Made by a program: the position numbers and the translations under genes. Shown in pieces: positions 9,001-60,876 of a stretch of DNA of 64,000 nucleotides (its first letter is position 1; each line of letters opens with the position of its first letter). The stretch comes from Dysidea avara (Eukaryota > Porifera > Demospongiae > Dictyoceratida > Dysideidae): contig NC_089285.1 of the NCBI RefSeq assembly GCF_963678975.1, positions 4,636,694 through 4,700,693 on the forward strand. Reading direction: 5' to 3'. The notes under the pieces were generated by a model. It did not search any database and was not told the DNA's origin. It was given only the letters and a program-made list of their open reading frames with translations.

Positions 9001-9065
9001 ACCATCCTGTATATAGTTCAGCTACATTTCAAGTCACCCAGTAGAGAGATCAGCTGCAAAAAAAA
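6060..9065 (+). repeat. 31-bp minisatellite array, ~3 kb
   Basis: About 95 imperfect tandem units of 31 bp, consensus near GAGATCAGCTACAAACAAAT followed by CACCCTGTAGA. Units vary (TTCAGC versus ATCAGC, AGAAACTAGACACAATGTAA variants) and higher-order blocks of several units recur, for example at 6840-7000 and 7440-7560. Non-coding. Confidence 0.9.
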
Positions 9066-18210: not shown

Positions 18211-18607
18211 ACAACAATAATTAGGCCACTACACTTTGATTTCAGCCATGTTTAGCCAGTTACACAGCATTGCATGGGAAGCTCCTCTGGAACCATTCCA
18301 GTCATTACAGTAACAGTAAATACAGATAACTTCTGTTACATGTGTAGGGAAGCCATTACGTGAAGCTAGCTACCACAAATCAACATCTTCCACTGTCAGT
18401 AAAGATACATAAAGGAGGACTCAAGTAGGTCCATGATGTTCACATTATAAGTACTGCGGTATGCCAAATTAAGATACCAAGTGATGTTGAACAGTGAAGA
18501 AATCAGGGGGTCTGTTCCAGGTAGTTGTAAAGCTAAGTACTGTGTGAAAATACACATATAGGTAGCAGGTATGTCCAGGTTTGCCAAACAATATCCCTAT
18601 GTTGTCA

Positions 18608-20360
18608 AAAGTTGTCCTACAGTCCAAAGGTTCAACTAAAGGAGGTCCAGAGGTTGCTGTCTTCAAATCCCAATGTCCAGAGGTCCAAAGGTTCCATCAC
18701 AGGACTGAGGTATTATCCTTGCATTATCCCAAGGTCCAGAGGTTGCTGTCATCTAATCCCAAGGTCCAGAAGTCCAAAGGTTCAACTAGAGGACTGAGGT
18801 ATTATTCCTGCATTATCCCAAGGTCCAGAGGTTGCTGTCATCTAATCCCAAGGTCCAGAAGTCCAAAGGTTCAACTACAGGACTGAGGTATTATCCCTGC
18901 ATTATCCCAAGGTCCAGAGGTTGCTGTCATCTAATAGAGGCCCAAAGGTTCACTATAGGACTGAGGTATTATCCCTGCATTATCCCAAGGTCCAGAGGTT
19001 GCTGTCATCTAATCCCAAGGTCCAGAGGTTCAAAGGTTCACTATAGGACTGAGGTATTATCCCTGCATTATCGTTCAAAGGTTCACTATAGGACTGAGGT
19101 ATTATCCCTGCATTATCCCAAGGTCCAGAGGTCCAAAGGTTCAACTACAGGACCGGGGTATTATTCCTACGTTATCCCAAGGTCCAGAGGTTGTTGTCAT
19201 CTAATCCAGAGGTCCAAAGGTTCAACTACAAGACTGAGGTATTATCCCTGCTTATCCCAAGGTCCAGAGGTTGCTGTCATCTAATCCCAAGGTCCAGAAG
19301 TCCAAAGGTTCAACTACAGGACTGAGGTATTATCCCTGCATTATCCCAAGGTCCAGAGGTTGCTGTCATCTAATCCCAAGGTCCAGAAGTCCAAAGGTTC
19401 AACTACAGGACTGAGGTATTATCCCTGCATTATCCCAAGGTCCAGAGGTTGCTGTCATCTAATCCCAAGGTCCAGAGGTCCAAAGGTTCACTATAGGACT
19501 GAGGTATTATCCCTGCATTATCCCAAGGTCCAGAGGTCCAAAGGTTCAACTACAGGACCGAGGTATTATCCCTACGTTATCCCAAGGTCCAGAGGTTGCT
19601 GTCATCTAATCCCAAGGTCCAGAGGTCCAAAGGTTCACTATAGGTCTGAGGTATTATCCCTGCATTATCCCAAGGTCCAGAGGTTGCTGTCAACTAATCC
19701 CAAGGTCCAGAGGTCCAAAGGTTCAACTACAGGACCGAGGTATTATCCCTACGTTATCCCAAGGTCCAGAGGTTGCTGTCATCTAATTCCAAGGTCCAGA
19801 GGTTGTTGTCATCTAATCCAGAGGTCCAAAGGTTCAACTACAGGACTGAGGTATTATCCCTGCTTATCCCAAGGTCCAGAGGTTGCTGTCATCTAATCCC
19901 AAGGTCCAGAAGTCCAAAGGTTCAACTACAGGACTGAAGTATTATCCCTACGTTATCCCAAAGTCCAGAGGTTGCTGTCATCTAATCCCAAGGTTCAGAG
20001 GTCCAAAGGTTCACTATAGGACTGAGGTATTATCCCTGCATTATCCCAAGGTCCAGAGGTTGCTGTCATCTAATCCCAAAGTCCAGAGGTCCAAAAGTTT
20101 AACTATAGGACTGAGGTATTATCCCTACGTTATCCCAAGGTCCAGAGGTTGCTGTCATCTAATCCCAAAGTCCAGAGGTCCAAAGGTTCAACTACAGGAT
20201 TGAGGTATTATCCCTGCATCATCCAGAGGTTGCTGTCATCAAATCCCAGGGTACAGTGGTTCAAAGGTTCAACCATAGGACTGAGGTACGTATTATCCCT
20301 AAATTATCCAAATGCCAAAAGGTTGCTGTCCTTATATTTAAAGATCCTGAGGTCCAAATA
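18608..20360 (+). repeat. Left subterminal tandem array (CCAAGGTCCAGAGGT units)
   Basis: About 1.75 kb of tandem units roughly 60-90 bp long, built from CCCAAGGTCCAGAGG, GTCCAAAGGTTCAACTACAG and GACTGAGGTATTATCCCTGC blocks. The same blocks occur as reverse complement in the array at 40850-42240. Matching outer flanks (ATGTCCAGGTTTGCCA and complement) show that the two arrays belong to one inverted structure. The long open frames running through the array are by-products of its period. Confidence 0.85.
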
Positions 20361-22654
20361 AAGTGTATGTCATGCGTATGAAGTTTATATTGTTTTAGTT
20401 GATTTCTTGCATTTACGTTGTTTATAGATTATTTATATAATTGTATATATGTGATTCTAAATCTATATGCCACATGTCAGATAACCAGAAAGTGTAATAT
20501 AGCCATGTATTCAGTCACTTAAGTTATAATTGTAATTTAAAACAAATTGATTGTGGAGAGAATACAACTGACTATAAATCATTCATGTACAATGAAATGT
20601 ATAGTAGTAATTTTCTACATATAGCTAGATGATTTTAACTTGATCAACTCTTTGGCGTTGTGTAAATGGCAAATGTAAGTTAGGAAGAATGTGTATACAT
20701 GTTGGTTCATTCTCTTTGTCATCTTTCCAAAAGCTGACATCCATGAAAACGTCTGCTCACACACTTCTGTGTCCACCTAAGGAAATAAGCAGCAGGACAT
20801 AATAATGGTACTAGATAAACATTATAAAAATAAAAGAGAACTATATTTATTTTATCATTTTAATTCTCAATAATGCATGTCCTGCAGTAAATTGTAATTG
20901 TACAAATAAGGTGGTCAATCAAAGCATATAAACGTTATGTCTAGGGTGGTGGAGCAGCTAAAGCAGATGGGAACTTTAGAGATGGGGTTATACAATGACA
21001 TTTGAAGCAGTATTATGTTGATATTATGGGACTCTGAAAATCACAGCATACTTTTCAAGCTTTCTACTTATCCAATGCTATCAATTTTATTGAATCTTAA
21101 TAGAGATGTATGTGTGGAAATTTTAAAATATTCTATCCCTCATCAAGTACACTGACCTAAATAGCCAGGAATTATCAGCATACTATTGGTTGGTCCTGAG
21201 ATATATGTACTGTATAAGTGTATATATAAAATTTTAGTCAACTAAGAAGCAGCTCACCCAGATGCAATGTAACTATATACATAAAAGCAAAGCAACTCCG
21301 GCAGCCATGTGAAACACAGATATAATTGCTGCCCAGTGAACCAACACTGGGATGCCTGTGCACCACTCAAGCACGTATGCCTTGTGCAGGTAAATCCTCC
21401 TAGGGCGGGGCTAGTAATCTGCAGGAGGACTGTCCAGGTCTCATGGAGAGAGGTCACGGAACCCAAAGTTTCACAACAACCCCACCACCACTAAGCAAGA
21501 CAATGATAGTTGGGCGTTTGCTTCCCCAGGTATCCATCGATGTGGTTTCAAGGGTATTCTATCACATATTGAACAGTCATATTTGATTCCAGTAAATAGC
21601 GATTTAAGTAACAGGGTGAAAGTACAGGTACTGTAGTCTAACTTAACTAATTGTGATAGCTAATAATACAGCCATACAGGTAGGTGCCTGGGTATGGCAT
21701 ATAAGATACTGTGCTAGGTACGCATAGCAATTCATAATTATTAATGAGAAACATGGGAATGCTATGCTAATAATTTGCCAAATTTTATTTTTTCCAGCAG
21801 TGGTATTGTTTTTTTCCTCTAATTTCACTTGAAATCGTCACACACAGATCTCTATTCAGACTGAATGGATATGCATAGTTTCCATAAAATTATGGTCAGA
21901 TACAGGGTGGGTTTGACATGTCTACTGCAGTGATAGAATGATTTTATTGATTGACTCTTGTTCTTTAGTGATCTCAATTTCACACAATTACATTTTAAAA
22001 GTATTCTTATCAAAACAGCACAGTATAAGTACTGTTTAAGTAGGGATCGCCCCAAAACTGGTACACACCACCAAAAATGCCACCATTAAAAGTCATCAGT
22101 TACAGTTGACATTACATTTGTTTTGCCCTTAGTAAAATGGCTGATAGTTTGCACCCAAGGCACTTTTATGGTCACAAATCTTCATTGCACACCTTTATAC
22201 AGTGTACACTATAATAATGTGACTGGAATCACTGGTGTGGGAAAAGTAGTCTTATTGCCCATGACAATAAGCTTGAATTTTAGTCCCAAATGTATATAGC
22301 TACATTAATACACTAGTTATTAAATTTCACTCTCATAACCAGCCAGATTTAAGTGGTCTGCTTCTGTTGACTGTGTTTTCCAAGCACAGTGTGGTGAGCC
22401 TTTCTAAGTCCAGTGCCTTGATGAAGCTATGGCCAATCAGGAGGTGGCTATGTGTATGGCGGTACAGCTCCATGGTATTGGATAAATAAGTTTTCTTTGT
22501 ATCTTTAGCTAATTGTGGTCCCCATGACTTAGCCTAATACACACGACACATTCCTGTTTCATTATTTCATTAATCTTTTCCTTACTTTGGCCCTTTTTCT
22601 GTTACACCTTATTAACTATAAGTCATTGAAGTCTAAATCATTGTATTTAGGTTA
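20361..22654. other. Stretch without recognised gene, inside the giant element
   Basis: AT-rich DNA. A CG-richer patch at 21290-21500 has a minus-strand 70-codon frame with no recognised family. No exon of the neighbouring transposase was found here, so the transposase 3' end may be lost or unrecognised. Confidence 0.4.
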
Positions 22655-23685
22655 GGTAATCCAAAGGCTGCAACACAAGTTGCTGTCAGACCTTCAGTGC
22701 TGGTCACTGTAAAGTGTTAATAATAATAACCTTTTGCCCTCCTCTCCACCCACTACTGCTCACCTGATACAGTCAATCTGGATCAACCTTGGTAAAACCC
22801 ATCTAAAATGGCAGGAAACCTATCTATTGGCTACCTGTTCTTCAGTGGATCATTTAAGGAATTGGCATGAAGGCAAAACATGTGAAAATCTTGTGCACAT
22901 AGCTACAAGAATTGGTGAACTACAACACTCAAAACCGGTATTTCTTAACAGTTAATTGTAAACAGATGATACTACCAGTTATTACAGAGACAGTCTCAGA
23001 TGGAAATTTGGCATTTGTATATTAATAACGTCATACAATTCATATAACTTACATCATTAAGCTCTTCAAAATTGTTCGGATCACAATTTTCAGCACACCA
23101 CTTGTCAACATGTCCTCTCATGTGTAGCTTATCTATTACAATCTCTATCTTAGCCAGTGCAGCAGCAGCTGAAGACACTTCATTACGTTGGGAGTTTCTG
23201 GCATACTTTCTCAAGTGACATCCATCATCATAACATATAAACTCTATATTTAAATATAGAATATATTTGGGTTACATGGTTATGCTTGTTTATAGTGTGT
23301 AGCCTTATTAATTTGTTTTGCATGTCTGACAATTGATCACAACTGTATGGAGACATAATGGTGTGTACTAGTATTATTGCAAGACAGTCACATACAACCA
23401 TTATCTGTAATTCATGATGCATCAATTATTGTCAAGAGTGGTAATAGTAAAAGGCTTCATTACAGACCTACATCTTAAATGGTGCAGATAATGCAGAGTG
23501 GATTTTGATGTCTAGCTGGAATCTCTTTGACAAAGGAACTTGGAGGAAACTGGATTGGCACTAACAGGCTTGTAGCTAACCACAAATCAACAAACCACAT
23601 CCACCATTCTCTAAGCTAGTAAGTCATACACTAGTACCTAGCACCTTAAAGTAAATTACTTTAGAGTACAATTGCAAGCAGTGGT

Positions 23686-24041
23686 GGGTGTAGGGGGGTT
23701 GCAATAGTTACAGCTAAATCCCCCTCTGAAAATAGCACACGTTCCCCTAATATATTTACAATTCGTGTGGGTGATAACATCACCAAGAGTTATACATAGT
23801 GTATATATTATATTAGGACTTTTTCTACTGGCCAAACTTCATACTTTTCCTTTGAAATCACCATTACGACATTCAACAGCGGGTAGTTGCATTTTTCTTT
23901 GGTCTTTGACTTAAAACTAGGCTAAAGTTACTATTCCAGAGTGGAATTCCCCTTTCATAAAGTCTGGATCTGCCCCTGACAGTTATTAAAAACTTCCTCA
24001 ACCTGAAACCCCCACTGAAAAACTAGATCAACCACTGACAA
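23686..24041. mobile_element. GGCGGATACAG-family MITE, diverged copy
   Basis: The ends GTGGTGGGTGTAGGGGGGTT and CCCCCACTGAAAAACTAGAT resemble 51055-51490. It lies in the transposase intron between 24268 and 23243. Confidence 0.65.
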
Positions 24042-27000
24042 GGATGCAGTAAAATTATTCTATCACCTCCCCTTCAATTGCCTCAAAGATGCAAGAAGTC
24101 AAAGTCTTACTATGGTACAATGGACATGATAGCCCTTGCATAATTATATTTTGCTTACATTAATCATTATAGCAGGAACACATACACAAAATCACATAAC
24201 AAAGTGTGAGTTTTGTGCTTTTTGTTGTATAATACATACACTCCTGATTATAATAATAACAACTTACTTATAGTGGAGCAGACATCAGGGAATGTATTGT
24301 ACATGTCATACAAGTATCCATATACAAGCCCAATTGACTCAGAACAATACAGTTAATTAAGTGATGTTATGATTCCACACGGCCACATTGTTGCAAGTAC
24401 ACCTAAAATTGTATAAATTTATCACACATGCCACATTAGCATAAAATTCACTAATATACGTGTAATAAAGTATTGCAAGTTATCTACATTCCATAATCTG
24501 AATGTTGGTGCACCATATAATAGTATGTAGTTTGGAGTTAGAAACATTTTGTAGAATCATCCTTGGACCATGAATTGTTCAACTAATTCTAATTCAATGC
24601 TTAATAAGTCAGCACAAAATACATTTGCAAACTCCATGTGCTCACAGGCACAGTCCCGGTAACATTTGTACATCTCTAACTTGTCCAGAAACATTTTTGG
24701 CATATTCTAATTATAAAGAAGATAAATTATAGACCAAAATTTTGCTCTTTTATCGGCACAAAATTTCTCAACCTTAAACATTTATTAGCAATAAAGTTAT
24801 ATATATGTACCTGCTGTCCTGTGATTCAAACGCATGTTCTTATCCTTCTCAGTATTGCACTTCAACTTATCTTCCTTCATATCATTATCCATGAGTTTCC
24901 TGGTAGAGCAGAACTTAAAGTCACCATAGATGTGATTGTCTTATTTATATGTACAAGTAAATGTAATTTTTGAATTTTTTAGCTAGGGATCATGGTAGAA
25001 ATAAAAAGTAAAGATACAAGGGTGATTGCCTACACCTCCAGCCATATAAATTATACTAGTGAACATATAATCACTACTAGTCATGACATGAAAGGATGTA
25101 GACTGAAGTATATCCATTAGTATATAGGTGATCATCCCTATGAACTTATCTTCGTTTACTCTTTGTAACTAGCTAGTGAACCCAAGCATACAAAATAATG
25201 GATCCAGACATCTGAACATGCATACCAATAATATTAATCAGTGAAAAGTCAATGGGTCATTCCGGTTCACTTTTTTTGTTCAGCACTTTACAAATGAAGA
25301 ATAGCATTAGAACCACCTCTACAATCAATCCAGTCACTATAATTATGGAAAATAGGAAAGATTCACTCATCTAAACACTCGTGCCCCAACCATCAACTTG
25401 TGAAAGTTACTGTACTATGTTCAGCCCATTACACAGTGTCACAAAGTACAAGATTGTGTGGAGCATGTCTGCAGTTAGTATGGATAATATGGACATTTAC
25501 TGCATGGGAAGCCACAGTGATGCACTACTATGAATCGACACCTTACACTGTCAGCAAAAGCATTGGGACACAAAAGAGGTAAGTCCATGATGCATTCATT
25601 GTATGTACTGCAGTATGCCAAATTGCACCAGTCAGGATGAAGCGACGTCTAACAGGGAAAAAGTAAGCCCTTAGCCTTAACTGTTGTCAAGTTATGCTTG
25701 TCTGAAGGCATCAGTTACAGTAGTAGTCAATCAGTAGAATAATTTCTTAGCAACCTAACATACACATAATTGGCTGCTCTGAAGACACTTTTGGGCTTAA
25801 TTCCACTGAGCCATGAACATGATCATTACTAGATTAGAAACCCTAGCTTCATTGCAAAAAGGAACTTTTCCTGGGTTCCCAACCTAATATTATTATATGA
25901 AGGTGAGTAAGAGAGATTTAATAAAATGCTGTTCCACACTTTGAAGTGACAAAACAACCTTCTCCTTATCTGACAACAGAGCTACTACAATTTAATTAGT
26001 ACTGCAATTTCATACTGACAGTCACTACGTATACATGGTGAAATTTTAGCTAGACAGTAGAAAATTTCCATTAATTTTGAGCAAAATAGATATTATCTTG
26101 GAACAAAACTATGGAGTACAATTGGTAGAAAAAGCAAAATAGCATAGTGATACACAAACCAACAGGGTTGGATTCAGCCAAGAACAGGTCTGATTGCTTG
26201 CTAAATATAGTAAGACTACTGGGTTGCTACATAGATGAAGAAAGCAACTACAAATACTTAATTAATACCTATTAACTACAAATAATGTGTGAAGAAGTTT
26301 AATTGATGCTGATTCTTAATTTTATTAATATTACAATGAAAATTTATTCTAAAGGTATTACTGTCACATATACTGTAGGATAAAGCTGACACATTTTATG
26401 ACTTGCAATTTAAATAATAAATAAATTTATGGTTATAAAAAATCATAACCAACCACACACATCTACCAACGCCTTAATGCATGCAGGCCCAAACAAATAT
26501 ATCTATCAACCAATATAAACTTTCTGCTTTCATAAATATCACCAAGGTGGGATTTATTCTTACCCTTGTGTCATTACTGTTTCATCCTCTGTATCAGTGC
26601 GTCTTCTTTTGGCACTATGATCTTTGCTTTGATCATCAGCTTCTTTATTGTCATCTTCATTATCATCTTCATGTCGTTTATAGTCCTCCACCATTTCTTT
26701 AGTAACATTAGATTCTGGTTCCCAAGTAACTTTATCATTTGGTCCAACACATAAAACCTTTAATTTTGCACAATCATAATGATACACACTGTCGCACTAT
26801 TGAATTTACATTTAATTTTGTATAAAATGCACCACATAGACCCTGCAAAGAAATGGTATACTGTGGTATTTCAAAATTAATACGTTTATGTATATGCAGT
26901 TATGGGACTAGAATAATGGACTGGACCACTGGACTTACATAGGTATTGCTCTAACACTTTTTAAAGTTCATGCAATAATGGCTTCACATGGTAGACGTAC

Positions 27001-27150
27001 ATACAGCTAACTGATTAGTTGATTTGAGTTCGTTTCAGATTTTAAAGCTCTGAGATAGCTTTTTAAAATTGCTGGCTAGAAACTTACAGCTTTTAAAAAT
27101 GTTTCTATTTTATTTGTACATAGCCTTATACCAGCATGCTGTGCATTAGT

Positions 27151-28358
27151 GTTGTTTTACTACAACTAAAACTAAAAGTACTTTAGTAAGACAAATATGT
27201 TTTAGGTACCTAAAACTATAACTAAAAGCAAATCCATATAAATCTATAATTAAAAAACAACTAAATAATTTCATATCAAAACATTTGTCAACTTTTACCA
27301 TACATTCTAAAAATCCGTAACATAAAAAAATACGCAAAAATTATACCGACTGCTAAATACGGCACCATAACTTCCGCATACGTTCATTTACGGAGATCTA
27401 CTATGGCTCATCAGAATCCTTAATCAATGGCGATTCGAGTGATATATAGGAGTTTGTGAAGTAACTAAGAGAAACGGCAGAATAGAGCCTTGTATCGCTA
27501 GATTATGTGTTCAGATAAGTAATAATTTAGCAGAAAATAACTGTTTTTTCGTATGTTTTGCAATGTAACTCTGTACAACAATTAGTTAGACACTTACTTC
27601 GGGTGGATTCTTAATCAGCAAGTGTCGATACGTAGAATGATACCAAGTTTAGCGAATTTGGTTGAGGGTAACACATTGCTTTTTTGGGGTTTCCCACCCG
27701 ATTAATTAAATTCTCCATAGGAAATTGTATGGGGGCACGTATTATGTTGTAATCAACAGTAAATAACTTTTACTATGGTAACAGTAGAGGGTTACTTCGG
27801 GCGGAATCGTGCATAGCAATTCAAGGGCTTTATTTTGTTGTATAATGTCCTGTAGAGATTATGGGTGCTAATGGTTGCTTTTTGTATTTAGTATAAAATC
27901 CATGTATTTTGAATGGGGGAAGAAATAATGGCTGCCGACAAGGTTTTTCAACCAACTGGTTTGACTAAGTTATGAATACCAAAATGACGTGGAGTTGATT
28001 TTAAACTATTTTATTACATAATTCATAAGATGTAATAGTAAAACTTGATGTTATGCAAAATTTTGTTTAGACCGCTTCGGTTTACAACTCCCAATAGAAT
28101 GTTTTGATATGTGCCAAAACTAAATCTAAGAATTGGGAAGAATAACTAAAACTATCTTATGCACAACTTAAACTATAACTAAAACTAAAAGGTTTTCATG
28201 TTCTTAAATAAAGCTATAACTAAAACTAAAATGACACAAGCAATATAACCATAACTCAATCTATAACCAAGAAGAATTACTAAAACTAAACTCATTGAAG
28301 AAACTAGCTAGCGACGTAAGACTAAGTAAAACTAAAACTCCTTACTAAAACAACACCA
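27151..28358. mobile_element. Possible insertion bounded by AAACTAAAACTAAAAG-rich ends
   Basis: The left end GTGTTGTTTTACTACAAC is mirrored by TACTAAAACAACAC on the right. Both ends lead into runs of AACTAAAACTAAAA-type repeat. It lies in the long transposase intron (26797-29245). No transposase frame is seen and the borders are approximate. Confidence 0.4.
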
Positions 28359-28944
28359 TGTTGCTTAGATCACTGCATGTATATAAGTTAACATACGTTC
28401 TACAGGTGGAACGAAATTAATTATAGCTTTAGTTTAAAAAGTAAAAATCTTTTAGTTATAGTTTTAGTAAAATCTATAAAAAACCTTTAGTTTTGGTTAC
28501 AGTTTTAGCTGTACATAAAAAAATTGCATTGCATTGCATAGTGCTTGTATTAGTGCCGGTAATAGGCAAGTTATCTTCAATGAACTATGCAGTTATACTA
28601 CCAATGAGATTTAACAAATAATGTACAAATTTTAGTGCCATGGTGAGTTACTTCGTGGTTAAGCAATAAAACAAAACAACCAGTCCAGTCTTGTAATCCA
28701 TCCAGTTAATGTATATATATCTAATATTGTGGAAAATATTGTACAGGTCACACTTGTACCAATAGCTCATAGAATACCAAACCTATCAGTTGCTTTGGTT
28801 ATAATTATTAGAAACTGCGTTGTTTGTAAACCAAATCACGGTAAGTACCCTGTATAATTGGTTAATATCTATGCAAGTATCAATGTGTAATGAATGCTGA
28901 GGCATAATATGTTAGATACAGACAGAGTTTAGACTGAAATGGTC

Positions 28945-29192
28945 AAACAAAAGTGGTTGAATTTGCGAAAAGGGGTCTTCCCCACACATCCAATTCTGTG
29001 AACTCAGAAGACCATAACTCAGTGTTCAAGAAACATAACATTCTGAAAAATATTCCATCCACTAATCTATGTTGGTACTTAGTACTGGTCAAATTTCAAG
29101 TCAATAGCCTTTTCCAATCTGAAGTTATGAGATGTCAATGTTGGTAAATTGGATGTGTGTGTAAGACCGTTTTTTGCAAATCCGGTCACAAA
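28945..29192. mobile_element. MITE with GACCGGATTTGCGAAAA-type ends
   Basis: The right end reads TTTGCAAATCCGGTCACAA and the left end has TTTGCGAAAAGGGGTC, with CCACACATCCAATT and its mirror inside. A cleaner relative with both ends intact is at 37933-38187. Confidence 0.55.
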
Positions 29193-31149
29193 TTGTCCTT
29201 TATCCATTATGAATCATTATGAATGTAATAATCATTACTGTATACCTGATAATATATTCCAGCACGTGTGGTCTTCTTGGCTGTAATGACTTTAAGTGGC
29301 TGTTCATTTGATGCCCCTGACAATGAAGTATGATCAGCACAGTAGCGGCTTTTGTAAGCTGGTGTATTAATACAACCAGTCTTTATCTGACCAGGAAGAT
29401 TCATAAACTCAATGTGCCCTGAATTCTTTGCAAAGCATATGTCTCTGTGGTTTTTCATATTTCCGTCAATCACTAGCACATATCCACAGCCTGGATATAA
29501 GCACCTGTGAGCTGCACATGCAAATAAATACATTATACATAAATACTGACTTACAAACCTGAGTATCTTTGTTTAAAAGCTAAACAGAGCTTTGGGTTAA
29601 TTTCTTTCAGGGTATAGTGTATGTCTGGTTTGATTGTTGTATCACTAAACACCTCCGGAAAACTTCTCTGGATACGAAGTACCGCAAACCGCAAATGCGC
29701 ATTTTCCAGCCTCCTTCTATCAAGTGGTGTTCTGTTGCTACAATAATGGTCAATATAAAATATAAATAAGAGTTGCTACTAGACAAGCTATATACACCTA
29801 AGCAATACCCATTATACACAAGAAACTGCAAATTCTAAGTGGTGATACATGTAAAGGTCACATTTTATATGTACCAAATTGAAATAATTATGGTTTGTGT
29901 ATGTATGCATGCAGGGCTGAAATGTTATTGGGAAAATCAATTTTGTAGTTAAAGTTATCCATAGTAAATTTTGTAAAATGACTAAAATGTTTACTCCGGC
30001 GTAGAAGCAGTTCATGAACCTGAAATTATTGTTGGACATCTGCTATTTTATTACAAAATCTGGCTAATGTTTGAACACATTTAGAACAGTACTAATGAGT
30101 ATGTCCAACCACATAACAGGACTGATTTGTCATCATTTCCAAAACATAATTTCAGACTCTGGAGTAGGAAATTCTGTGCAAATGAAGTTATACTGATACT
30201 TTAAATACATATCTATTAGCAACAGGAGTCAGAATGCTAGTGTAATCATTTTACATAACAAGTGGTATTATATCAGACTGTCTAATTAAATTCCTTTAGA
30301 AATTATTTGGGATCTGTATTTCATGTGGCATCAGACTAACCTTTTACATGTTTCACTTGTAAGAAGCACCTCATCACTTTGAAAAGTTGTACTCTTCTTT
30401 TTACTATCTAATTTGGTGTTGCGCTTTTTGAAGCTGTCATAGCATTGGTAATGGTTGTAAATGTCGGCCTTTTGGTTGTATGATAATTGCCCAATTAAAA
30501 GCTCTGAGTCCATCTTCTTCAAAAATTCTGTCTCAAATACCGTCTCTTGTGAGGAAACGAAGTATGGGAGGTCTGCCCAATTATCATCATACTGTGCACC
30601 AGATTTCAGCCCACTAGTTACATAGCCATAGTGTTGTACAACTTTACATTTGGGATTTTTGCACAACTTATGGTAGTGCATTCCAACAGTAGTACCCACT
30701 GATTCAGAATAAATCGTGACTTGGCTAGGACGATCAGACCTTAGTCTAAGACTGTTGCCACACTGGAAACACGAAGATTTATCGGAAATCAAAACCACGC
30801 CCAACTCTCCGCTTCCGTCGCGCTTTTGCATGTGCACCAGTTCCTCTGCGAGCTCTCTGTCAGATATAAATGCAGCAGGATAAATGGTCCTGAGATTTTG
30901 CAAGGCTATTTGTAGCTTCCTTTTAAAACTCTCTTCCAAGACATCTGGGTTGTCACCTGTAGCGAACTTAACCACCGTCTCCCAATAAAGAGGATACTCC
31001 TTTGGTAAAGCAGCAGACACGAAAATTAACCGTCTACGTACAACAGCACTTGGAACTAGTGTACACAGTATATCCATTGGCGATAGGTTATCAATGGGCC
31101 AATTTAACGTCGCGTCGGAATTCCGGCTCCTTATAATTAACTTCCGCAA

Positions 31150-31345
31150 GAACTTCCGCCATAGGTAATTTACGAGTACATTAGTGTTTCACAGTGGATC
31201 CTGAGGGTATCCGATCCGGACTTGCTTCCCATTATGACGTAAACGTTCACTGTAAATTTCCGCGGGTGCTTGACTCATTTCTTTGCATCACCAAGTTCTT
31301 GCAACCATTTGAGTCTTAGTTTGTTGTAGTTAGCTACAGCGCATA
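31150..31345. promoter_or_regulatory. Likely shared bidirectional promoter
   Basis: The ~196 bp between the divergent transposase and DUF3987-like genes is richer in CG than the surroundings. It contains TGACGTAAAC (about 31234), which matches a CRE/ATF-type site. It has no TATA box at a convincing distance. The role is inferred from position only. Confidence 0.45.
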
Positions 31346-34300
31346 ATGAATAGCACACTGAAGGAATTTGTGTCTACCAGCCAAGCGAAGGTTAGCGCAG
31401 AAGCTGCTGAGACGAGAAGAAGGTTGGAGAGATGCTGGCCTTTTGACGTGAATTGGGATCTTTACCCCAAAAAGCTTTCTCTTGTAAGTTAACAATACAT
31501 GAATAGCGAAAATAGACTTGTGCATAAACTAGCTACGTTGGATACTAGATAGCAGAATGTAGCTACCTACTGATTAGCTACCTATATTCTACCCTGAGTA
31601 GCTTTTGTGTATCACAGCCGGCAGTGACCAACACCGAAGGTCTAACTGCAACTTGTGCTGCAGCGGTCTTAGGATTACATGCATGTAGCTACTTTCATTT
31701 AATTTTTGTATCTGTAAGTGTTTAGTGCTGTATATGGAAGAATGTTCCAAGAGAATAAATAGATTTTCTTCATAGGGTTGTAAGCAGTTTGGAAAGTCTC
31801 TTGGAGTTCCATCAAGTTGTATATTGGCCGGGCTTGTAATCCTATGCAGTTTTATGTTGTCTCCAGCCCAAGTCGCTGTCCCAGGAACAAGCTGGACAGA
31901 ACCAGTTCTTGTATGGATCACAATGTCGATGTCGACAGGTTCTAGGAAATCAACTATATATAGTCTGCTATCCAGGATTGTCAAGGATGTGAAAGAGAAA
32001 GTTGGGATTAAAGGTGAGGTTTTGTTTACCAGAATGTTCTTTATATAAAAAAATTATCATGGTGTATCTAGGCACACAAAACATTATTAAAACTGTGTAT
32101 TGTTTCTGCAATCAACACTAGTGTAAGATTTTACTGATCCAGTAGCTACATGGCTTCATAATTACTTACTCCATTTTACACCACTTTAAAAATCACTTAC
32201 TATTTACAATTTAAAATGTCACAAGTCTACTCCTTAGAAAAGTTTCTAAGTGCATACAGCCCATTACAATTATGTCACAGTAGAGAGTCCAAGCAATTCA
32301 TTAGACTGAACTTCTTGTAGCTACAGTAGCTACCACCAGGTGAATGCATAACATTGATAGGAAGAAGCAATTATTGTTTGCATTTCTACTGCTGTGAAAG
32401 GATAGCAAGACATCCTGTATATAATTAACACTATAATAATCCCTGTGTCCATGGTTACAACCAGGTGGATGGTCTTAGTGTTACAAAAGTGCTACACAGT
32501 GAATGTCACTGAAGCAGCTGGTTACAATGTTGTGCAGATATATTCTCACCTGTATGGCTAACTATCAATGTGTGAGCTGAAATCGTTAATGTTCTTCATG
32601 TACAGTAGATATAATGACATGAAATGGCTACTGTTTGATATGAAATAGCTACAATTTGAGCCTTAAAAACCACACTCATGGGGAGTTTGGAGAATGTGAG
32701 CTATAGCTATATGCTAGCTATAGCTATATGCTAGCTATAGCTACATGCTAGTTCAAAGGGTTACATTGTATGCCTGCATTTTGTTTAGAAACAAGATCAT
32801 GGGGAATGAAGGACACAAGTTTTCAGAAGATGGGAGAACTAATGGCAGATAACGATGGAAGACTTTTGGGAATTTTTGATGAACTCTCCTCATTTTTGGC
32901 CAAAATAAATATTTATAATGGCAAAAGTATATGTGACTCCAACGAACTATCAATGCTATTAGAGCTATATAATGGCAATGGTTGGTCAAGGAACACTGGT
33001 AAGTTATTTTTTGTTATTGCATGAATAATCCTGTTAATACAATAGCCAGAACGTAGTGTCACAGTCCCAAAATAACAGTTCACATATATTTTATATATAC
33101 ATGCACACATCATGATTAGTATTATCATGATAACATGTCATGCAGCTATGAACAAATGGATAGTCATCACTATACACAGAATCCAAGAAAACTTTATTTT
33201 CAACAGTATGGATATGTAGTACTATCATACACTACAGTAGTACTGCATATCTGGGGATGATTAGAGTCTCAGAGTAGCCAAAAATGTTGCTAGCCAAGTA
33301 GCTATGAAATTTAATTCAGTGGAATTTGTGCTGACTGACCGGTTTAATTTAGTGGAATTTTCTGCTGACTGACCGATGCCTGCCTTCATACAGGTGTAAC
33401 TCCATAACAGCTAAGGTTACAGGCTTGATTTATTCACTGTTAGACATTATATACTTCAGCCCAATTGGTATATTGCAGCATAATTATATTAATTTCATTA
33501 AATTTTAATTATGAGGCAAGCTATGTAAAGAAAGCCAAGCTATTTTGCATTAAACTAGTTGTCTTACTTGCTAGTTTTTCTACATGCCTTACTTTGTAAA
33601 ATGTGAATTCTACCTTGAATCTATATCTATATATATCCAATGTAAAGGTTTGCAACTGCACCAAGGGGGTTAGAATTTTTAGAACAGTTTAGTTACTATT
33701 AAAAGTGTGTGGGTGCCAAACTTTGGACAGTTTTTGTTTTCAATGTTCTATCTTCACCATGCAAGCAAATCATTTCATACGGTGATAAAACCTATTCTAT
33801 GGTGCATCCGTCCTGCAAGTTTCATTATAATATCTCCATCAGTTCAGGAGCTATGCTCCAAAATTCAATTGTGTGTAATTTTCGTGAATGTTTGTAACTG
33901 CGGACACTTGTTATTACGCCTGAAACAATGTTTCAGAAGATGATTTCAAATTTTAAACACTGCCACATTTAACTTAATAGCATCTATTTCCCACTTCGTA
34001 CTCAAATTTGAAAGTAATAATTCTTGCATTGTCAAGTTTTGGAAATTTCAATCAAAGTGTATTTCGGCAAGTTTAAGTGCAGTTTGAATGAGACTGGCTC
34101 ATACAAAATCATCCATAATGAGTATTTGGCTGATTGAGTGACTGTAAACGAATGGAACTTGGTACAGTGGTAATTCATAGTAGGCATTTCTGCCCTTTTT
34201 AGAAAATGGACATTTTATATGCTCATTGTATAGATAGAGTATTGATCGCTGATCTCAGAAATATATTATTTTGTTGGGTTGGAATTGGCTACTTTGGCAT

Positions 34301-37300
34301 GCACAGTTCTTTTACAAGGCTCCAGAGCTCCACATACATTTTAAAAGAAAATATGGCACAATTGAAATAGGAAGCCATCTAGTAACATGGACTGTCTAGA
34401 AATTTCTATAGTTATGCAGTAGTTGCAAGTTTGTACATGTAATGAGAGTAACTTTAGGTTTTGTTGATACCCAGTGACCTTAGTATATACGCCTTGTGGT
34501 GAACAAATACTGATGTTTCACCAAATGGGCACTTGTCAATACAATGCTGTATAGTTACCCAATGCAAGGCAAGTGGCTATCTCAAGTAAGTGAAAAATAT
34601 TAAAAGTTAACAAGTTATAAAGGTAACAACTGAAGCGGAGGTGTGTCACAATGATGCAACAGTATTCCTGCCTTGCCAGTGGGAATTCATGGAGAATCTT
34701 TTATTTTAAAAATCTTGGATACTGAAATGCCTATTCGTAGTTGTATTCTGTGCTGTACTAAAATCAGCTAGATAGCACTATTTGCTTCAAATATTGAACA
34801 TCATATCTCAAAAAGTAGCTGCTGTATTTATTTGAGATGAATGCTTCATTTATGATGATACTATGATTCCAAAATGTACTGCTAGTTAAGGTGACTGACT
34901 GATGCATTCAGACAAGCGTAACTCGATAACGGCTGGCTTGATTTTTTCACTATTTGGTGTCACTTCGGTCCGAGAGGTGCCTTTTGGCATACTACAGTGC
35001 GTACAATACTATGCATGACAAAATTATCAAAAATTCATCGCACTTGGTGTGCAACATAATGCTATGTCTTAACACATTAGTTCAAATCTATTGTTTTACT
35101 GTAGTGTCAGGTGAAGCCAACTTTCAAATGCCAAGTACAAGCTTGACAGTTGGGGGATTTAATCAGCCACCAATAGCACGAAGCCTGATTGAAATACAGC
35201 GAAACGCTGAGAAAGGACTGTCACAACGATTTATGTGGTTTTTCCCCAAGCCAATTTGTGGAAAACTTCGTGATCTGCAGCCACTGGATAAAATCTTTTA
35301 TGATCAGCTTGGTATGAAATAAACATGTAAATACATGCAAGTATCTCTTTGTTTGTATAATTTAAGTCAATTTTGTTGTTTATGTGTTTGTCAGTTTCAC
35401 AGGGTAGTCAGGCATGAATGCAGTTTCATTGTAAACATACCTGAGTGTTAAACTATGGTGTACAGTGTCCCACCTACTTCAAAAATCACCTAGCACAGAA
35501 CAGTGTTATTATTTCAACCAGAGTAATTATCAGTGAAAAGTGAGAATCACAACATTCAGTAAACATTTTCTGACCTGGCAAAATATTGGGAAATGGATGG
35601 CAATCTTGCTAATTGGTCGGCAAATGGCTGATGGCCAACTGTTACTGTCATCCTAAGCACATTCTTTCCTGAGTATATATTTTACATAGCTGTTCTCAAG
35701 TAGATATTGTTTTAGGGTGTACATTATGTCTAATATGCAACAGATGGCTCCTTTATCAATGTAACCATACGGCACAGTATCACAGGGAGTCATAATCATG
35801 CAGTACGATATACTGTATAGTAGAGTCCACAAAGATGCGGGTGTGGCCCATAAAAACAACATTTAAAATCCTGCATCATTTCCCCTAACAATGATGAAGC
35901 AGTATTGGTTAGATAAAACTAAGCCCACAAGCCTTCAGATTGACCCAAAATGTTTTCAACAAGTTGCTAAGGGATTTTAAAAATATATGTTTAACAGAAT
36001 TTCTACTAACTGACTGACTGACTGATGCATTCAGACAAGCGTAACTCGATTACGACTGGCTTGGTTTTTTCACTATTTGGTGTCACTTCGGTCCGAGAGG
36101 TGCCTTTTGGCATACCACAGTGCATATAATGCATTCTTCATGGACTTACCAGTGGCCTCCTTTATGTCCAATTCATCTTTGCTGATGGCAAAAATCAAAG
36201 TGTCGATTTTGGCAGTAGCACGTGATGGCTTTCCTTAGGCTACTTTGATTGCAGAGGTGCTTTTTGAACAGCTCTTGATTTTTAATGCTGTGTAATGGGT
36301 AGAACATAGCTGATACACTTTTAAGATGATAACTGATAGCTGGGGTACACGGTATCATTTCTTTCTTTTGATGCGGTATGCATAGGTTCACCAGTCATAG
36401 TAATTTTGTTTTACAAACAAAGTTAACAAACAAGTACACAAAAGAGTTTGGAATTTTCGACAGAGTAGGGACCATTACTTGAGCACAGTAGGGATATACA
36501 CTTCTTATGGCTTTACTGTGATTATATTTTAATACTGTGCACTACTTCAGCTTGTTTCAGAGCTTTTATCAATGTGTTATGGTTCCTACTCTAGTTGAAA
36601 TTCCAAACTATTTTGTGTACTTGTTAAGGAAAACAATGTCCCTGAAGCTACTACAGACTTTTAAGAGTCTGTGTTGCCAATGATGCTATGTTATGTAGCA
36701 GTGAATGTCCACAACATATTTATGCTCCAAATGGGAAGCACAATGACTATATACACGGGCTGAAACTAAATGGATATAATACATTCATGCAAAACTACCA
36801 CAAATTTATTGGAGACAGCAATATAAGATGTCAATGTAACTATTGATATTTGTCTATTCTGTGTTACAAGTCACCCCTGAACTATGAATACAACATACCA
36901 AATAGTTGGTAACACATACATTGATTTGGATATCTGATTTATAAACACAATACTTGGAGAAACAAAACAACTATTGCCACATTTCCTTGAGCATTATATT
37001 TACAAATCAGATATGGGTAAGTATATATTAACTGTTACTTAAATATAATATTTTAGTTGACTTGTTTTTTGAAACCTGGCAACGTGGAAATGATGACTCA
37101 GATGACTGCCTGACAACTCGTGAATTTATATTTTTAAATGAGCACTTTGCTACTAAATATGATGAAATTCAAGAGGCAGTAAGCAAGTTGGCAGGTTTAG
37201 ATGATTTGCTTGCTGGTGAGATATGCATAAGTTTATGCGTATATGCATGTAGCAAGCATAGTCAAGATACACTAATATACAATATAATAATATTATCATG

Positions 37301-40300
37301 TAATAACACATGTGTATGAAGAAACAGTGACTTTGTAAATGTTAGTGAGTACACAACAAATCATAATGGGTAATGATGTGGATAGCATAACCCTGTATCA
37401 TGCAGATACTATTATTATGTGCCTTCCACACACATGTCCATTTTATTAACTTTGGTAATTCATGACGTCACACTGGTAAAAATATTAATGTAAAATTTGG
37501 TCAGTATTGAGCACTAACATAGCTTAGCAGATGTTTTTAGTCTAAAAAACATTTAGGTATGTCTATAAAAACAATCCAGTGGTAGCACTCGTGTTGGCTG
37601 GGGTGGTTGACCACTCAGCATGGTGAGAGATATCAGCCTTCACCGGCTTGGGTGATTAGTTGTACTGGCATGAGCGCTGTGGGCTATTAGCCTGCACTAG
37701 AGCAAACTGTTCTTTATTGCCCACAAAGAATGCTTTATTGCACGACAAAGAATGCTTTATTGTACTATTGAAGTACTCTTTGTGGGCAATAAAGCACTGT
37801 TTGCCGTCATAAAGTGTACTTTATGAAATTTAAAATACACTTTTCCTTTGATCTTGCCCATGCAAAGCTCTATAATTATATTATAATGTGTAAACCAGAG
37901 AAACAATGAAAGTACTATACACGGATGATAATTGTGACCGGATTTGCGAAAAGGTACCTTTTCCACACATTTGACATATCAGCAAACAAAATAATGTAAC
38001 ACTTGATTCCTTATACTGATTAACTTGCTCTTAGTATCACAATGTAGCCAGATACTGTAGCTACATTCATTGAAAATTTCAAGCAATTATACAACATGAT
38101 CAAAAAGTTATGAAGCTTTACAGTTCAAATAATGGGTCAAATTTTGTGTGTGAAAAAGGTACCTTTTCGCAAATCCGGTCACAATTACAGCTCAAATATT
38201 TCATAATCTTATACTGTGTTCACTCACATCCTGGCTGAAATTTGGAAAGAATGATCTGACTAGCTAGACTTAGAAATGCACTAAGATTAAGCATCATTTC
38301 AACAGATTTGTGACAACAGAGTCACTGTGTGTACTTTACTGATAAAATGCAGCTAGTCGTGGCAAACTTAATATTATTTTTAAATTGTAGAGATAGTGCA
38401 CACAACCAGTATATGGAACCGTTTCCAAACATAATGCAATGTAGTCAAATTTTATGTACTCCTCGCATCAGGGACTGTGACCAAACTGTTGGAAATCAGC
38501 ATGTAGTACCAACAATCGTATTGTAATGCTTAATGTTACTACTTTTACTTTATTAGGCATGCTCAGCAAATCAACTGGTCAAATACTAAGAGTGGCAGCA
38601 TGCTTCAATGTGTTGTTCAGGATCCGTGATTCAACTGAGCCATGGCCAGAAAACAATCCAGAAGACAAGATTATTCATGATGCTATAAAAGCCGCGTGTG
38701 ATTTTGTGGACATATGCTGTATTCACACAGCATTCATGGCTGGGAGGTCAACCTCATTATCAAAAACGCAGGAACTTAAAACAAGCGATGAGAATTTTTT
38801 CCTTGTATTTCCTGGCAGTGTATTAATTTTAAGTGATATCATAAATGCAAGAAGGTTTAAGAGTAGGGGGAAAAAGGATGAGGCTGTAACTGCTTTAACA
38901 GCACTGCAAAATGATGGCTTGGGAACACTGAGTGACTTACCATCATCCAAGCATTCTGCACACACTGTGAGTGTCATGTGTAGTAGTATTATTGTGTTGA
39001 TACAAAAATCACTTATTGCACTACAACAGAATAGTGTATGAATAATGATGTAGGAGCTCTCCTATTATTAACTATGATGAGAAATTGACCATTAAATTCA
39101 TGTCCTAGTTATTGTATGATATATAAGTTTGATTTGCACACTTATAGTGGTCTAACTCACAGAATGCGTGAATAGCAATCTCAGCAAAATTGCAACATCT
39201 TGAGAATTTAGGACCCGTGCATTATATAGACTCGCGTAGCCAGACTGCTTTTTTCTTTTGTGTGGGCATCGGGGAAAATCCCTGACACCCACATAAGAAA
39301 AAAGCTGTCTGGCTACATGAGACTATGCATTATATAGCTCCAGAAACATTAAATATATACAGCAGTGCATGGAGTTAATAGATGTTTATGTAAAAGTGTA
39401 CTTTAGGTCATGTACACTTTCTCGTCCTTTCCTGGGTCTGACTACATCAAAAAAATTTTGGTACTGCTCATGGTTGATTGCAAATAGAACTGTATACGTA
39501 AGTTGGTTACTTGCTAGAAAAGTCTAAAAATTTACATTTCATATCATAATTATGAACTTTCTAATTTCTATCGATGTAGCTAAACGCACCTTCTCACATT
39601 GTAATCAAGTTTATGTTGCATAAATTCAAATTTGCTCTCATTTTAATTGTTTATTATTATAGGATGTACAAATAACGCAGTATGCTTAACTACATATACT
39701 ACTATATAATGTAAATCATACATGTACAAATTATCTGATAGGCATATCAATTCACTAAGGCTAAGGTGCCAGATTCACCAGAAGGTAAAGAAAAGTTTGC
39801 TGCTGCCTTGATGAAGCACGGGGTTTCACTGGAGGAATATGTAGAGGCATTTCAAAAGCCAAACTTCGTACATGCACCGTAAGCAATTTATTATATAGAT
39901 GATTTGTGTTCCAAGTTGACAATACTACAAACAATACTTACCAATGATATTGTTATAATCGTGAAGTGTTCTCGATCAATGTTCTACCCATACTTGCCAA
40001 AGTAGTTATCCAATTGTTAGCAGCAAACACACCTTAGTTTACAGCATACAACACTAAAACTTAAACTGAGATTTCTGCTTATTGCCCAATAAACACCTTA
40101 GTATCTAATTACAGTTAAAAAGCTACATCATTGTCCTACTATCACTCTATCAATCATACGTATAGTATTACAAGTAAAGCTACAGATGCTAAGCATTTAT
40201 CCAGTCATATAATTTGTATACAGTAGACAATTTTACTGTCAATCATAATTGTAAAAATAAAGATTTATAATTTATTACTTTGATACATATGTTTTCAGGC

Positions 40301-40389
40301 CATCAAAGAAGAAGAGGGCAATTATAGAGCCTGGTGAACAGAGCAAAACCAAAAAGTCCAAGGAGGTTGCAGAGTCAGATGAGGACTGA
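31346..40389 (+). CDS. DUF3987-like P-loop ATPase gene, eight exons, open throughout
   Basis: Exons 31346-31483, 31776-32013, 32789-32998, 35105-35311, 37057-37215, 38557-38966, 39742-39878 and 40299-40389 join with matching phase at every junction. They give 529 codons from an ATG to TGA, with GT/AG borders. A Walker A-like TGSRKST is at about residues 100-106, after EPVLVWITMSMS. A Walker B-like LLGIFDELSSFL is near 151-162. LTVGGFNQPPIARSL (about 209-223) and GLSQRFMWFFPKP (about 233-245) resemble the sensor and arginine-finger region of DUF3987 proteins, followed by a helical C-terminal half. The last exon encodes a basic PSKKKR motif, a likely nuclear signal. DUF3987 proteins are best known from phages and mobile elements; the activity here is not known. 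The gene sits head-to-head with the transposase inside the giant element. The family call rests on motif recognition. Confidence 0.75.
32697..32752 (+). repeat. Short tandem repeat of TAGCTATAGCTATATGC
   Basis: Three copies of a ~19-bp unit lie just upstream of exon 3 of the DUF3987-like gene. Confidence 0.85.
33020..35100. other. Intron sequence of the DUF3987-like gene
   Basis: It holds two copies of the dispersed repeat seen at 2840-2990 (33345-33460 and 34890-35030). Open frames of 60-80 codons near 33.7 kb have no family signature. Confidence 0.45.
36000..36600. repeat. Dispersed repeats in an intron
   Basis: A copy of the TCACTTCGGTCCGAGAGGTG module (36000-36150) is followed by half of a palindromic MITE (36470-36600, CACAGTAGGGATAT through CAGCTTGTTTCAG). 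Confidence 0.6.
37699..37800. repeat. Hairpin with CTTTATTGCCCACAAAGA arms
   Basis: TTTATTGCCCACAAAGAATG is mirrored by TTTGTGGGCAATAAA. A tandem copy of AAGAATGCTTTATTG lies between the arms. Confidence 0.65.
37933..38187. mobile_element. MITE with TGTGACCGGATTTGCGAAAA ends
   Basis: The ends TGTGACCGGATTTGCGAAAA and complement are perfect and continue through GGTACCTTTT. It is 255 bp and non-coding. A relative is at 28945-29192. Confidence 0.8.
39227..39325. mobile_element. 99-bp MITE with 9-bp target duplication
   Basis: Ends TAGACTCGCGTAGCCAGAC and, as complement, TAGTCTCATGTAGCCAGAC. TGCATTATA is repeated directly at 39218-39226 and 39326-39334. It belongs to the same family as 5442-5889. 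Confidence 0.85.
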
Positions 40390-40702: not shown

Positions 40703-40849
40703 CATTAATGACGTGCAATTTTATAACAAATAGAAAAGTAAACATACTATGTATCACACACAAATAGTATACTAGTCAATACAAATACACTCATAATACA
40801 GTAATATTGTATATTAGGAATCATGGAGGTTTGCATTTTCTTACAAAAA

Positions 40850-42240: not shown

Positions 42241-42289
42241 TAAAGGACTTTTATTGGCAAACCTGGACATGTATGATAGGTAGGGGGTC

Positions 42290-60246: not shown

Positions 60247-60876
60247 TACTACACAGTTATACACAGTATGTTAATACCCTACTACACAGTGTGAGACATA
60301 TCCAATACTTATGTGAAAATTTCCCTTCTACACACCATGATACAATTGTTATAATACAATTTACAGGTGTGTATATGGGACTCAGTAAATGGTAAACAAT
60401 TGGGGAAATCCCTAACTGGCCACAGACAGTGGATAACATGGTTGTCATGGAGACCAATGCATCAGTAAGCAAAATTAATAAGCTCATATGCAGACCATGT
60501 GTAGATGTTCTGCATATAGTTGTGAGACTGAATTGTATGGGACTTGTAAATGCGAAGTCAAACTGTTGGAAATGATCAGTGTGGACTTAGCTTTTACCTC
60601 CATTAGCTTTATTGTAATGCCAATGGAAAGTATAGTCAATTAGCTACAGCCTGTACTTGCGGAAGCTACATAGGCCTAACAACCACTGTATCATTTTTTT
60701 GCAGAAGCTGTACAAGCTTTATGCTTGCTTTCAACTTTTGGTCCTTGTGTACATTTATCATCATTTGTGTTAGTAGTTATAACACTTTGTGTACAGCAAT
60801 CATAGCAGCCTGTGCTTGTATACACTGTATTTTGCATTGATAATTACATAATATTTTATGGTACATAATTCGTACA

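What the first reader, a model, noticed from the sequence alone, without database searches (positions are those of the whole stretch)
23053..40389. Head-to-head pair: KDZ transposase and a DUF3987-like ATPase
Seen: two divergent split genes about 0.2 kb apart inside one pair of inverted ends. The plus-strand gene has Walker A/B-like motifs, GGFNQP and GLSQRF..P blocks. Inference: a transposase plus AAA-like ATPase helper, an arrangement functionally reminiscent of two-component transposition systems such as Tn7 or Mu but with unrelated parts. I know of no described KDZ element with this partner.
Basis: partly seen in the sequence, partly recalled or inferred. Interest (0 to 1): 0.87.

Follow-up and report, generated by a model that had tools for sequence, protein, structure and literature searches.

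The report
Sponge transposon with helicase-like partner gene
In a marine sponge genome, a family of large "jumping genes" carries not only the enzyme that cuts and pastes it but also, back to back with that enzyme, a helicase-like motor protein, an arrangement seen again and again among its diverged relatives in that genome.

Summary
Window 18566-42275 is one 23,710-bp transposon: imperfect 22-nt inverted ends (19 of 22 alike), a perfect 8-bp target duplication and subterminal tandem arrays. Inside lie a minus-strand KDZ transposase gene and a plus-strand 527-aa DUF3987 gene (80.6 bits, cut-off 27), start codons 268 bp apart. The host is probably the sponge Dysidea avara. In its genome 17 of 20 loci found with the KDZ CxC5/CxC6 exons have a DUF3987 gene within 10 kb, all 17 head to head. 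Found with the catalytic exons, 14 of 46 loci, mostly other KDZ types, have one within 25 kb. A second, diverged family has its own inverted ends and 8-bp duplication around the same pair. DUF3987 is predicted in print to be a mobile-element helicase, so I read this as a two-gene KDZ transposon with a helicase-like AAA+ partner. A Tn7/Mu-like role is possible but untested; structure prediction was off. The window's transposase has an in-frame stop. Other animals could not be surveyed. The open-access searches made showed no such KDZ element.

The parts
18558..18565 (.). Left copy of the 8-bp target-site duplication ATAGGTAG
18566..18587 (+). Left terminal inverted repeat CAGGTATGTCCAGGTTTGCCAA (KDZ side); element start
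18643..20288 (.). Subterminal tandem array, unit about 89 bp
   Evidence: inverted counterpart at 40848-42133
20615..20776 (-). KDZ last catalytic exon, VDTEVCEQ (borders approximate)
23053..23243 (-). KDZ catalytic exon with ICYDDGCHL (borders approximate)
24268..24402 (-). KDZ catalytic exon WPCGII...ES; carries an in-frame TAA in this copy (borders approximate)
24811..24914 (-). KDZ exon CNTEKDK...TAG (borders approximate)
   Evidence: same segment in one-frame homologue P0017
26564..26796 (-). KDZ chromodomain-like exon (borders approximate; Pfam Chromo 16 bits, below cut-off 25.1)
   Evidence: Chromo over cut-off in homologue P0017
29246..29511 (-). KDZ CxC6-like exon, VIDGNMKNHRDIC (no Pfam match on its own)
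29559..29737 (-). KDZ exon LDRRRLE...
30341..31077 (-). KDZ first exon with CxC5-like cysteine cluster; start ATG at 31077
31078..31345 (.). 268-bp intergenic region between divergent start codons; presumed shared promoter (inferred)
31346..31483 (+). DUF3987 ATPase exon 1
31776..32013 (+). ATPase exon 2, Walker A-like TGSRKS
32789..32998 (+). ATPase exon 3, Walker B-like FDELSS
35111..35311 (+). ATPase exon 4, GGFNQP and GLSQRF motifs
37057..37215 (+). ATPase exon 5
38557..38966 (+). ATPase exon 6 (end of the DUF3987 match; winged-helix-like tail, inferred)
39742..39878 (+). ATPase exon 7
40299..40389 (+). ATPase exon 8, basic tail and stop codon
40848..42133 (.). Right subterminal tandem arrays, inverted relative to the left array
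42254..42275 (-). Right terminal inverted repeat (reverse complement CATACATGTCCAGGTTTGCCAA); element end
42276..42283 (.). Right copy of the 8-bp target-site duplication ATAGGTAG

Best explanation
Window 18566-42275 is a two-gene DNA transposon of the KDZ group. A 268-bp divergent intergenic region (presumed promoter) drives, to the left, a CxC5-CxC6-chromodomain KDZ transposase and, to the right, a DUF3987 AAA+ ATPase with a basic tail. Shown: one mobile unit with inverted ends and an 8-bp duplication holds both genes, and the head-to-head pair recurs across diverged families of this genome. Inferred: the transposase cuts at the inverted ends and binds the subterminal arrays; the ATPase is a helicase-like motor that works on the element's DNA, most likely unwinding or remodelling the ends or the strand-transfer product so that a 20-24 kb element can be moved or re-copied. 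I put about 0.95 on the two-gene transposon and about 0.5 on helicase/remodeller as the motor's role.
For: TIR plus perfect 8-bp TSD around both genes. Second family on C5: 20,551 bp, inverted ends scoring 54 (best of 1000 shuffles 30), TSD TGAAAACT/TGAAAACT, KDZ (+) and ATPase (-) inside. Copies with both genes between the same ends on C3 and at C14:7.84M, with different 20-nt flanks. 17 of 20 CxC5/CxC6-KDZ loci paired within 10 kb, 17 of 17 head to head, median gap 644 bp. 0 of 39 PF18758 matches lie within 30 kb of an ATPase locus. Catalytic exons on the KDZ side in 14 of 17 paired loci. ATPase pS 0.72-0.91 against pN 0.18-0.36 over 15 pairs. Divergence of the two genes correlates over 5 families, r 0.77, 3 of 120 permutations as high. 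DUF3987 80.6 bits; PHROG_2373 DNA helicase E 4e-8; DUF3987 predicted helicase (PMC5862659, passages).
Against: No activity, expression or structure was measured. The window's P-loop reads TGSRKS, with R where GxxxxGK[S/T] has G; two other families have TGSGKS or TGNGKS, two relatives have TGSRKT or TGSTKS. The window KDZ has an in-frame stop. The C3 and C12 end pairs show no TSD, and at C14:7.84M the repeat CACTAGCC lies 8 nt from the end. 5 of 22 ATPase loci and 3 of 20 KDZ loci are unpaired; 3 of 17 paired loci lack detected catalytic exons. Catalytic-exon loci: 32 of 46 have no ATPase locus within 25 kb, and 7 of these have an exon 44-78% identical to the window's, so KDZ copies of this type without a detected partner exist, whether cut short or not.
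Confidence: 0.72

Rival explanations
1. The ATPase is a TnsC/MuB/IstB-like regulator: it polymerises on target DNA, chooses or marks the target and activates the KDZ transposase, making a eukaryotic two-component transposition system.
For: Head-to-head co-inheritance with the transposase, P-loop motifs and few amino-acid changes against saturated synonymous sites fit any essential transposition partner.
Against: Profile matches are to DUF3987 and a phage DNA helicase family; no TnsC, MuB or IstB model appeared in the Pfam, PHROGs or NCBIfam tables (NCBIfam was given only relatives). A fold comparison could not be run.
Confidence: 0.25
2. The ATPase is a captured passenger that rides with the transposon and has no role in its movement (for example protection from silencing, or replication of extrachromosomal copies).
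For: Accessory genes of other functions are known in KDZ elements, such as TET/JBP dioxygenases in fungi (PMC12730594, abstract and passages). Some KDZ loci of this type show no partner.
Against: Present in 11 paired families by my grouping, always in the same orientation, with few amino-acid-changing differences while synonymous sites are near saturation.
Confidence: 0.15
3. The pair is two unrelated genes that are adjacent by chance or by copying of one segment.
For: Three groups contain near-copies (window group; C1/C9/C7; C5/C6/C6), by my reading.
Against: Expected chance pairs 0.016 of 20; 11 groups remain after grouping near-copies. Two diverged families are each bounded by inverted ends and an 8-bp TSD.
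Confidence: 0.01

Closest known systems
Zisupton (KDZ group) DNA transposons
   Same: KDZ transposase, multi-exon gene, TIRs and 8-bp TSD (8 bp stated in PMC12730594, passages; multi-exonic in PMC9297572, passages).
   Different: Partner DUF3987 gene, CxC5/CxC6/chromodomain architecture, 80-89-bp subterminal arrays. Placement inside KDZ was not tested by a tree.
TET/JBP-carrying KDZ elements of fungi
   Same: KDZ elements that carry a second, unrelated enzyme gene (PMC12730594, abstract and passages).
   Different: There the partner is a dioxygenase, thought to counter silencing; here it is a helicase-like ATPase.
Kolobok lineages with accessory enzymes (KolobokH with RecQ helicase; Kolobok-1_CCri with RecQ on the complementary strand)
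   Same: Eukaryotic transposon with a transposase plus a helicase, once on the opposite strand (PMC9587614, passages).
   Different: Different transposase superfamily and a different helicase family.
Giant KDZ elements of algae
   Same: KDZ elements of 30.3 and 31.7 kb (PMC12477816, passages).
   Different: No DUF3987 partner is mentioned in the passages seen.
Bacterial primase-DUF3987 proteins
   Same: DUF3987 P-loop domain, predicted helicase of mobile elements (PMC5862659, passages).
   Different: Here it is a stand-alone spliced animal gene next to a transposase; no primase domain appeared in the Pfam tables.
Tn7 and phage Mu (transposase plus TnsC/MuB; recalled)
   Same: A transposase with a AAA+ partner in one element.
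   Different: Neither protein was shown to be related to theirs; role untested.

Membership tests
KDZ transposons | PF18758 catalytic domain above the curated cut-off | tested here: met
   43.8 bits, cut-off 26.6, exons joined with X at the stop; 18 bits for one exon alone
KDZ transposons | Acidic catalytic residues conserved (which residues are catalytic is inferred, not from a call) | tested here: met
   DGN in 4 of 4 (VIDGN in 3, VVDGN in 1); YDDGCHL in 2 of 3 newly fetched KDZ stretches and DTE[VI]CEQ in the same 2 of 3; the third, L056, ends just before those exons, which one search places at C3:33060208
KDZ transposons | CxC5/CxC6 clusters | tested here: inconclusive
   Window CxC5 20 bits, below 26.9, and no CxC6 match; relatives P0060 27.4 (over) and P0017 26.5 (just under); CxC6 in P0017 15 bits, below 27.5
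Zisupton | TIRs and 8-bp TSD | tested here: met
   Window and C2; C5. Not met at C3 and C12; displaced at C14:7.84M
Zisupton | Groups with Zisupton in a transposase tree | not tested
   No tree was built
Kyakuja | 7-bp TSD, CA..TG ends, no TIR (PMC12730594) | tested here: not met
   8-bp TSD and TIRs; the CA..TG part is met (CAGG...TATG)
DUF3987 | PF13148 above the curated cut-off | tested here: met
   80.6 bits; relative P0003 97.5; cut-off 27
DUF3987 / P-loop ATPase | Canonical Walker A GxxxxGK[S/T] | tested here: inconclusive
   Window TGSRKS; of the 5 aligned sequences that cover the loop, 2 have G before K (TGSGKS, TGNGKS)
Two-component Tn7/Mu-type systems | ATPase of the TnsC/MuB fold that directs the transposase | not testable with these tools
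Kolobok | Kolobok transposase | tested here: not met
   The catalytic region matches KDZ, and no Kolobok model was in the Pfam table

The most novel reading that the evidence does not exclude
A eukaryotic two-component transposition machine: the DUF3987 AAA+ protein is required for KDZ transposition in this lineage, assembling on the 80-89-bp subterminal arrays or the target and driving end remodelling or target choice, a role like TnsC/MuB reached with unrelated parts.
Probability: 0.3. Interest if true: 0.85.

Novelty: new variant of a known kind. Interest (0 to 1): 0.68.

Why it matters
Most eukaryotic cut-and-paste transposons are pictured as needing only their transposase. A KDZ lineage that has kept a helicase-like ATPase head to head with its transposase through deep divergence suggests a motor-assisted mechanism and a way to move 20-24 kb elements. 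It also gives DUF3987, a domain of unknown function predicted to be a mobile-element helicase, a testable animal setting.

Tried and rejected
Candidate exon 31618-31713 was in the 559-aa queries and was later dropped (absent from P0001). A frameshift suspected in the LDRRRLE exon was rejected, because the other frame aligns with relatives. Ten kb upstream of 20 of the 39 PF18758 matches held no DUF3987 or CxC match at E 0.01 (one weak catalytic-exon match in L025, 28%). Viral contigs: 21 and 32 pattern matches, no relatives. Bacterial and archaeal contigs: 37 pattern matches, no relatives. Solved structures: no match for the single protein at E 1 or the profile at E 5. The C2 element shares ends and arrays but showed no KDZ or ATPase match in its first 8 of 16 kb. 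A genome search with PF13148, to ask whether any DUF3987 is a plain host gene, did not complete. The KDZ-side end of the C9/C7 family was placed where similarity stops; its other end was not reached, so no TSD was tested. Considered and rejected: chance pairing, and two nested elements.
Full report
WHERE. The window is G000:C14:4636694-4700693 of a 550.8-Mb genome in 108 contigs. An NCBI protein named Dysidea avara, P0003, lies on a contig of 65,135,833 bases, exactly the length of contig C1 here, so I take the host to be that sponge (Porifera, Demospongiae). Another protein of that name, P0009, whose aligned part is given as 100% identical to the window's ATPase, lies on a contig of 14,977,628 bases, which is not the length of C14 (14,966,200), so the assemblies are not proven to be the same.

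THE GENES. The plus-strand gene has eight exons between 31346 and 40389 and codes for 527 aa; all internal borders are AG/GT. It matches Pfam DUF3987 at 80.6 bits, cut-off 27. The minus-strand gene is a KDZ transposase. Its first exon is CxC5-like (20 bits, below the cut-off of 26.9), followed by an LDRRRLE exon, a CxC6-like exon, a chromodomain-like exon (16 bits, below cut-off) and the catalytic exons. Joined, with X at one stop, the catalytic exons match PF18758 at 43.8 bits, cut-off 26.6. The homologue P0017 has CxC5, chromodomain and catalytic segments in one open frame, which supports the exon order. The start codons of the two genes are 268 bp apart. The window KDZ carries an in-frame TAA in one catalytic exon; the two close copies are open in that exon.

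THE ELEMENT. Its ends are CAGGTATGTCCAGGTTTGCCAA at 18566 and the reverse complement of CATACATGTCCAGGTTTGCCAA ending at 42275, flanked on both sides by ATAGGTAG; it is 23,710 bp long. Inside each end lie tandem arrays inverted with respect to each other. With up to 3 mismatches the end pattern has 53 forward and 48 reverse matches in the genome, against 2 and 0 for the reversed control. Such ends enclose the same two genes on C3 (24.7 kb) and at C14:7843816-7866991 (23.2 kb), with different 20-nt flanks. Of the five end pairs of this type looked at, two have a perfect 8-bp duplication (window, C2), one has an 8-9-bp match displaced by 7-8 nt (C14:7.84M) and two have none (C3, C12).

A SECOND FAMILY. 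The C5 locus has a diverged pair; its exons are 47-59% (ATPase) and 37-63% (KDZ) identical to the window's. Its left end at 5509145 came from the end-pattern search with 3 mismatches. The other end was found by looking for the left flank's last eight bases, TGAAAACT, in 9 kb beyond the KDZ gene's CxC6 exon: one occurrence, just beyond the array. The two ends next to these eight bases align over 45 columns with score 54, against a best of 30 in 1000 shuffles; the aligned part begins 7 nt inside one end and 12 nt inside the other. That element is 20,551 bp and holds KDZ (+) and ATPase (-). Arrays with units of 80-89 bp adjoin the KDZ side in the window, C9, C7 and C5; an 89-bp array also lies at an end of the C2 element.

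THE PAIRING. ATPase loci came (80 matches, 78 of 100 candidates scored; grouped by me into 22 loci) and KDZ loci, made with the CxC5, LDRRRLE and CxC6 exons (42 matches; 20 loci). 17 of 20 KDZ loci have an ATPase locus within 10 kb, 17 of 17 head to head, gaps 269-5810 bp with median 644; expected by chance 0.016. Near-copies grouped by me leave 11 families. Unpaired: KDZ at C1:61636332, C15:949692 and C14:8480183; ATPase at C1:58596738 (a partial copy near a right end), C15:1269564, C15:1303387, C15:1382061 and C4:24349762.

THE SAME TEST FROM THE CATALYTIC SIDE. The chromodomain and catalytic exons gave 83 matches, 46 clusters; 14 have an ATPase locus within 25 kb, and these 14 are 14 of the 17 pairs. 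Not detected at C14:239k, C3:39.17M and C14:11.89M; at C3:24.26M one of two catalytic matches is on the other strand. Of the 32 clusters without an ATPase locus, 25 have a best exon of 25-42% identity, so probably other KDZ types; 7 reach 44-78% (C1:61.66M, C13:18.78M, C14:1.02M, C15:347k, C15:745k, C15:1.48M, C15:13.3M). Of these 7, only C1:61.6M also had a CxC5/CxC6 match, so the other six may be cut short; this was not checked. As a control, none of the 39 PF18758 matches lies within 30 kb of an ATPase locus, and 10 kb upstream of 20 of those 39 showed none.

SELECTION AND CO-INHERITANCE. Over 15 pairs of ATPase pieces (64-265 codons) from six loci, synonymous differences are near saturation (pS 0.72-0.91) while pN is 0.18-0.36. 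Identities of the two genes over five families correlate, r 0.77, 3 of 120 permutations as high.

WHAT THE ATPASE IS. The window protein matches PHROG_2373 'DNA helicase' at E 4e-8 and its relative P0003 at 1.1e-17. DUF3987 domains are predicted to be helicases of mobile-element replication (PMC5862659, passages). The Walker A-like loop varies: TGSRKS in the window; TGSRKT, TGSTKS, TGSGKS and TGNGKS in relatives. The likeness of GGFNQP and GLSQRF to sensor-1 and arginine-finger motifs of AAA+ helicases is recalled, not tested.

ELSEWHERE. Homologues of the ATPase: 14 proteins at E 1e-3 or better, two of them named Dysidea avara. Homologues of the KDZ N-terminal part: 48, including one from the anemone Exaiptasia diaphana (P0060). 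Neither search gives gene neighbours, so pairing outside this genome is untested. Only the 8000 candidates sharing most words were scored in each search.

IN PRINT. Searches of the held open-access library for KDZ/Zisupton (25 of 66 papers listed), Kyakuja/Dileera, DUF3987 with transposon or eukaryote, sponge combinations (15 of 36 listed), Dysidea avara, AAA+ ATPase and helicase/accessory showed no KDZ element with a DUF3987 partner in the listings and passages that I saw. The founding papers of Zisupton and KDZ are not held, so this does not prove absence. Precedents for accessory genes are TET/JBP in fungal KDZ elements (PMC12730594) and RecQ helicase in Kolobok lineages (PMC9587614); giant KDZ elements are known in algae (PMC12477816); all seen as passages.

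VERDICT. A real two-gene transposon lineage; the helicase-like nature of the partner rests on profiles and its role is inferred.

Noticed in passing
C2:35240794-35256827 (L054) and C12:11224790-11241625: 16-17 kb elements with the same type of ends; the C2 one has a perfect 8-bp duplication GGACTGAA and an 89-bp array but no KDZ or ATPase match in its first 8 kb: possibly non-autonomous relatives.
   Followed up: partly
L055 1830-3461, L058 807-2104, L057 6733-8480, window 18643-20288: Subterminal tandem arrays with 80-89-bp units next to the KDZ side in three diverged families; possible protein-binding sites.
   Followed up: partly
C13:18.78M, C14:1.02M, C15:347k, C15:745k, C15:1.48M, C15:13.3M: KDZ catalytic exons of this type (44-78% identical) with neither a CxC5/CxC6 nor an ATPase match nearby; perhaps cut-down copies.
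   Followed up: no
window 31618-31713 and about 22640-22710: A short similar sequence occurs in an ATPase intron and on the minus strand near 22.7 kb; seen by eye, probably a dispersed repeat.
   Followed up: no
window 6230-9064 and 60876-61862: Long tandem arrays outside the element, units about 31 bp and 29 bp.
   Followed up: no
window 29146-29191, 37929-37969, 38147-38187: Short inverted and direct repeats around TTGTGACCGGATTTGC, perhaps ends of a small nested element.
   Followed up: no
C14:7843786-7843867 (L031): The target repeat CACTAGCC lies 8 nt outside the inverted end instead of touching it.
   Followed up: no
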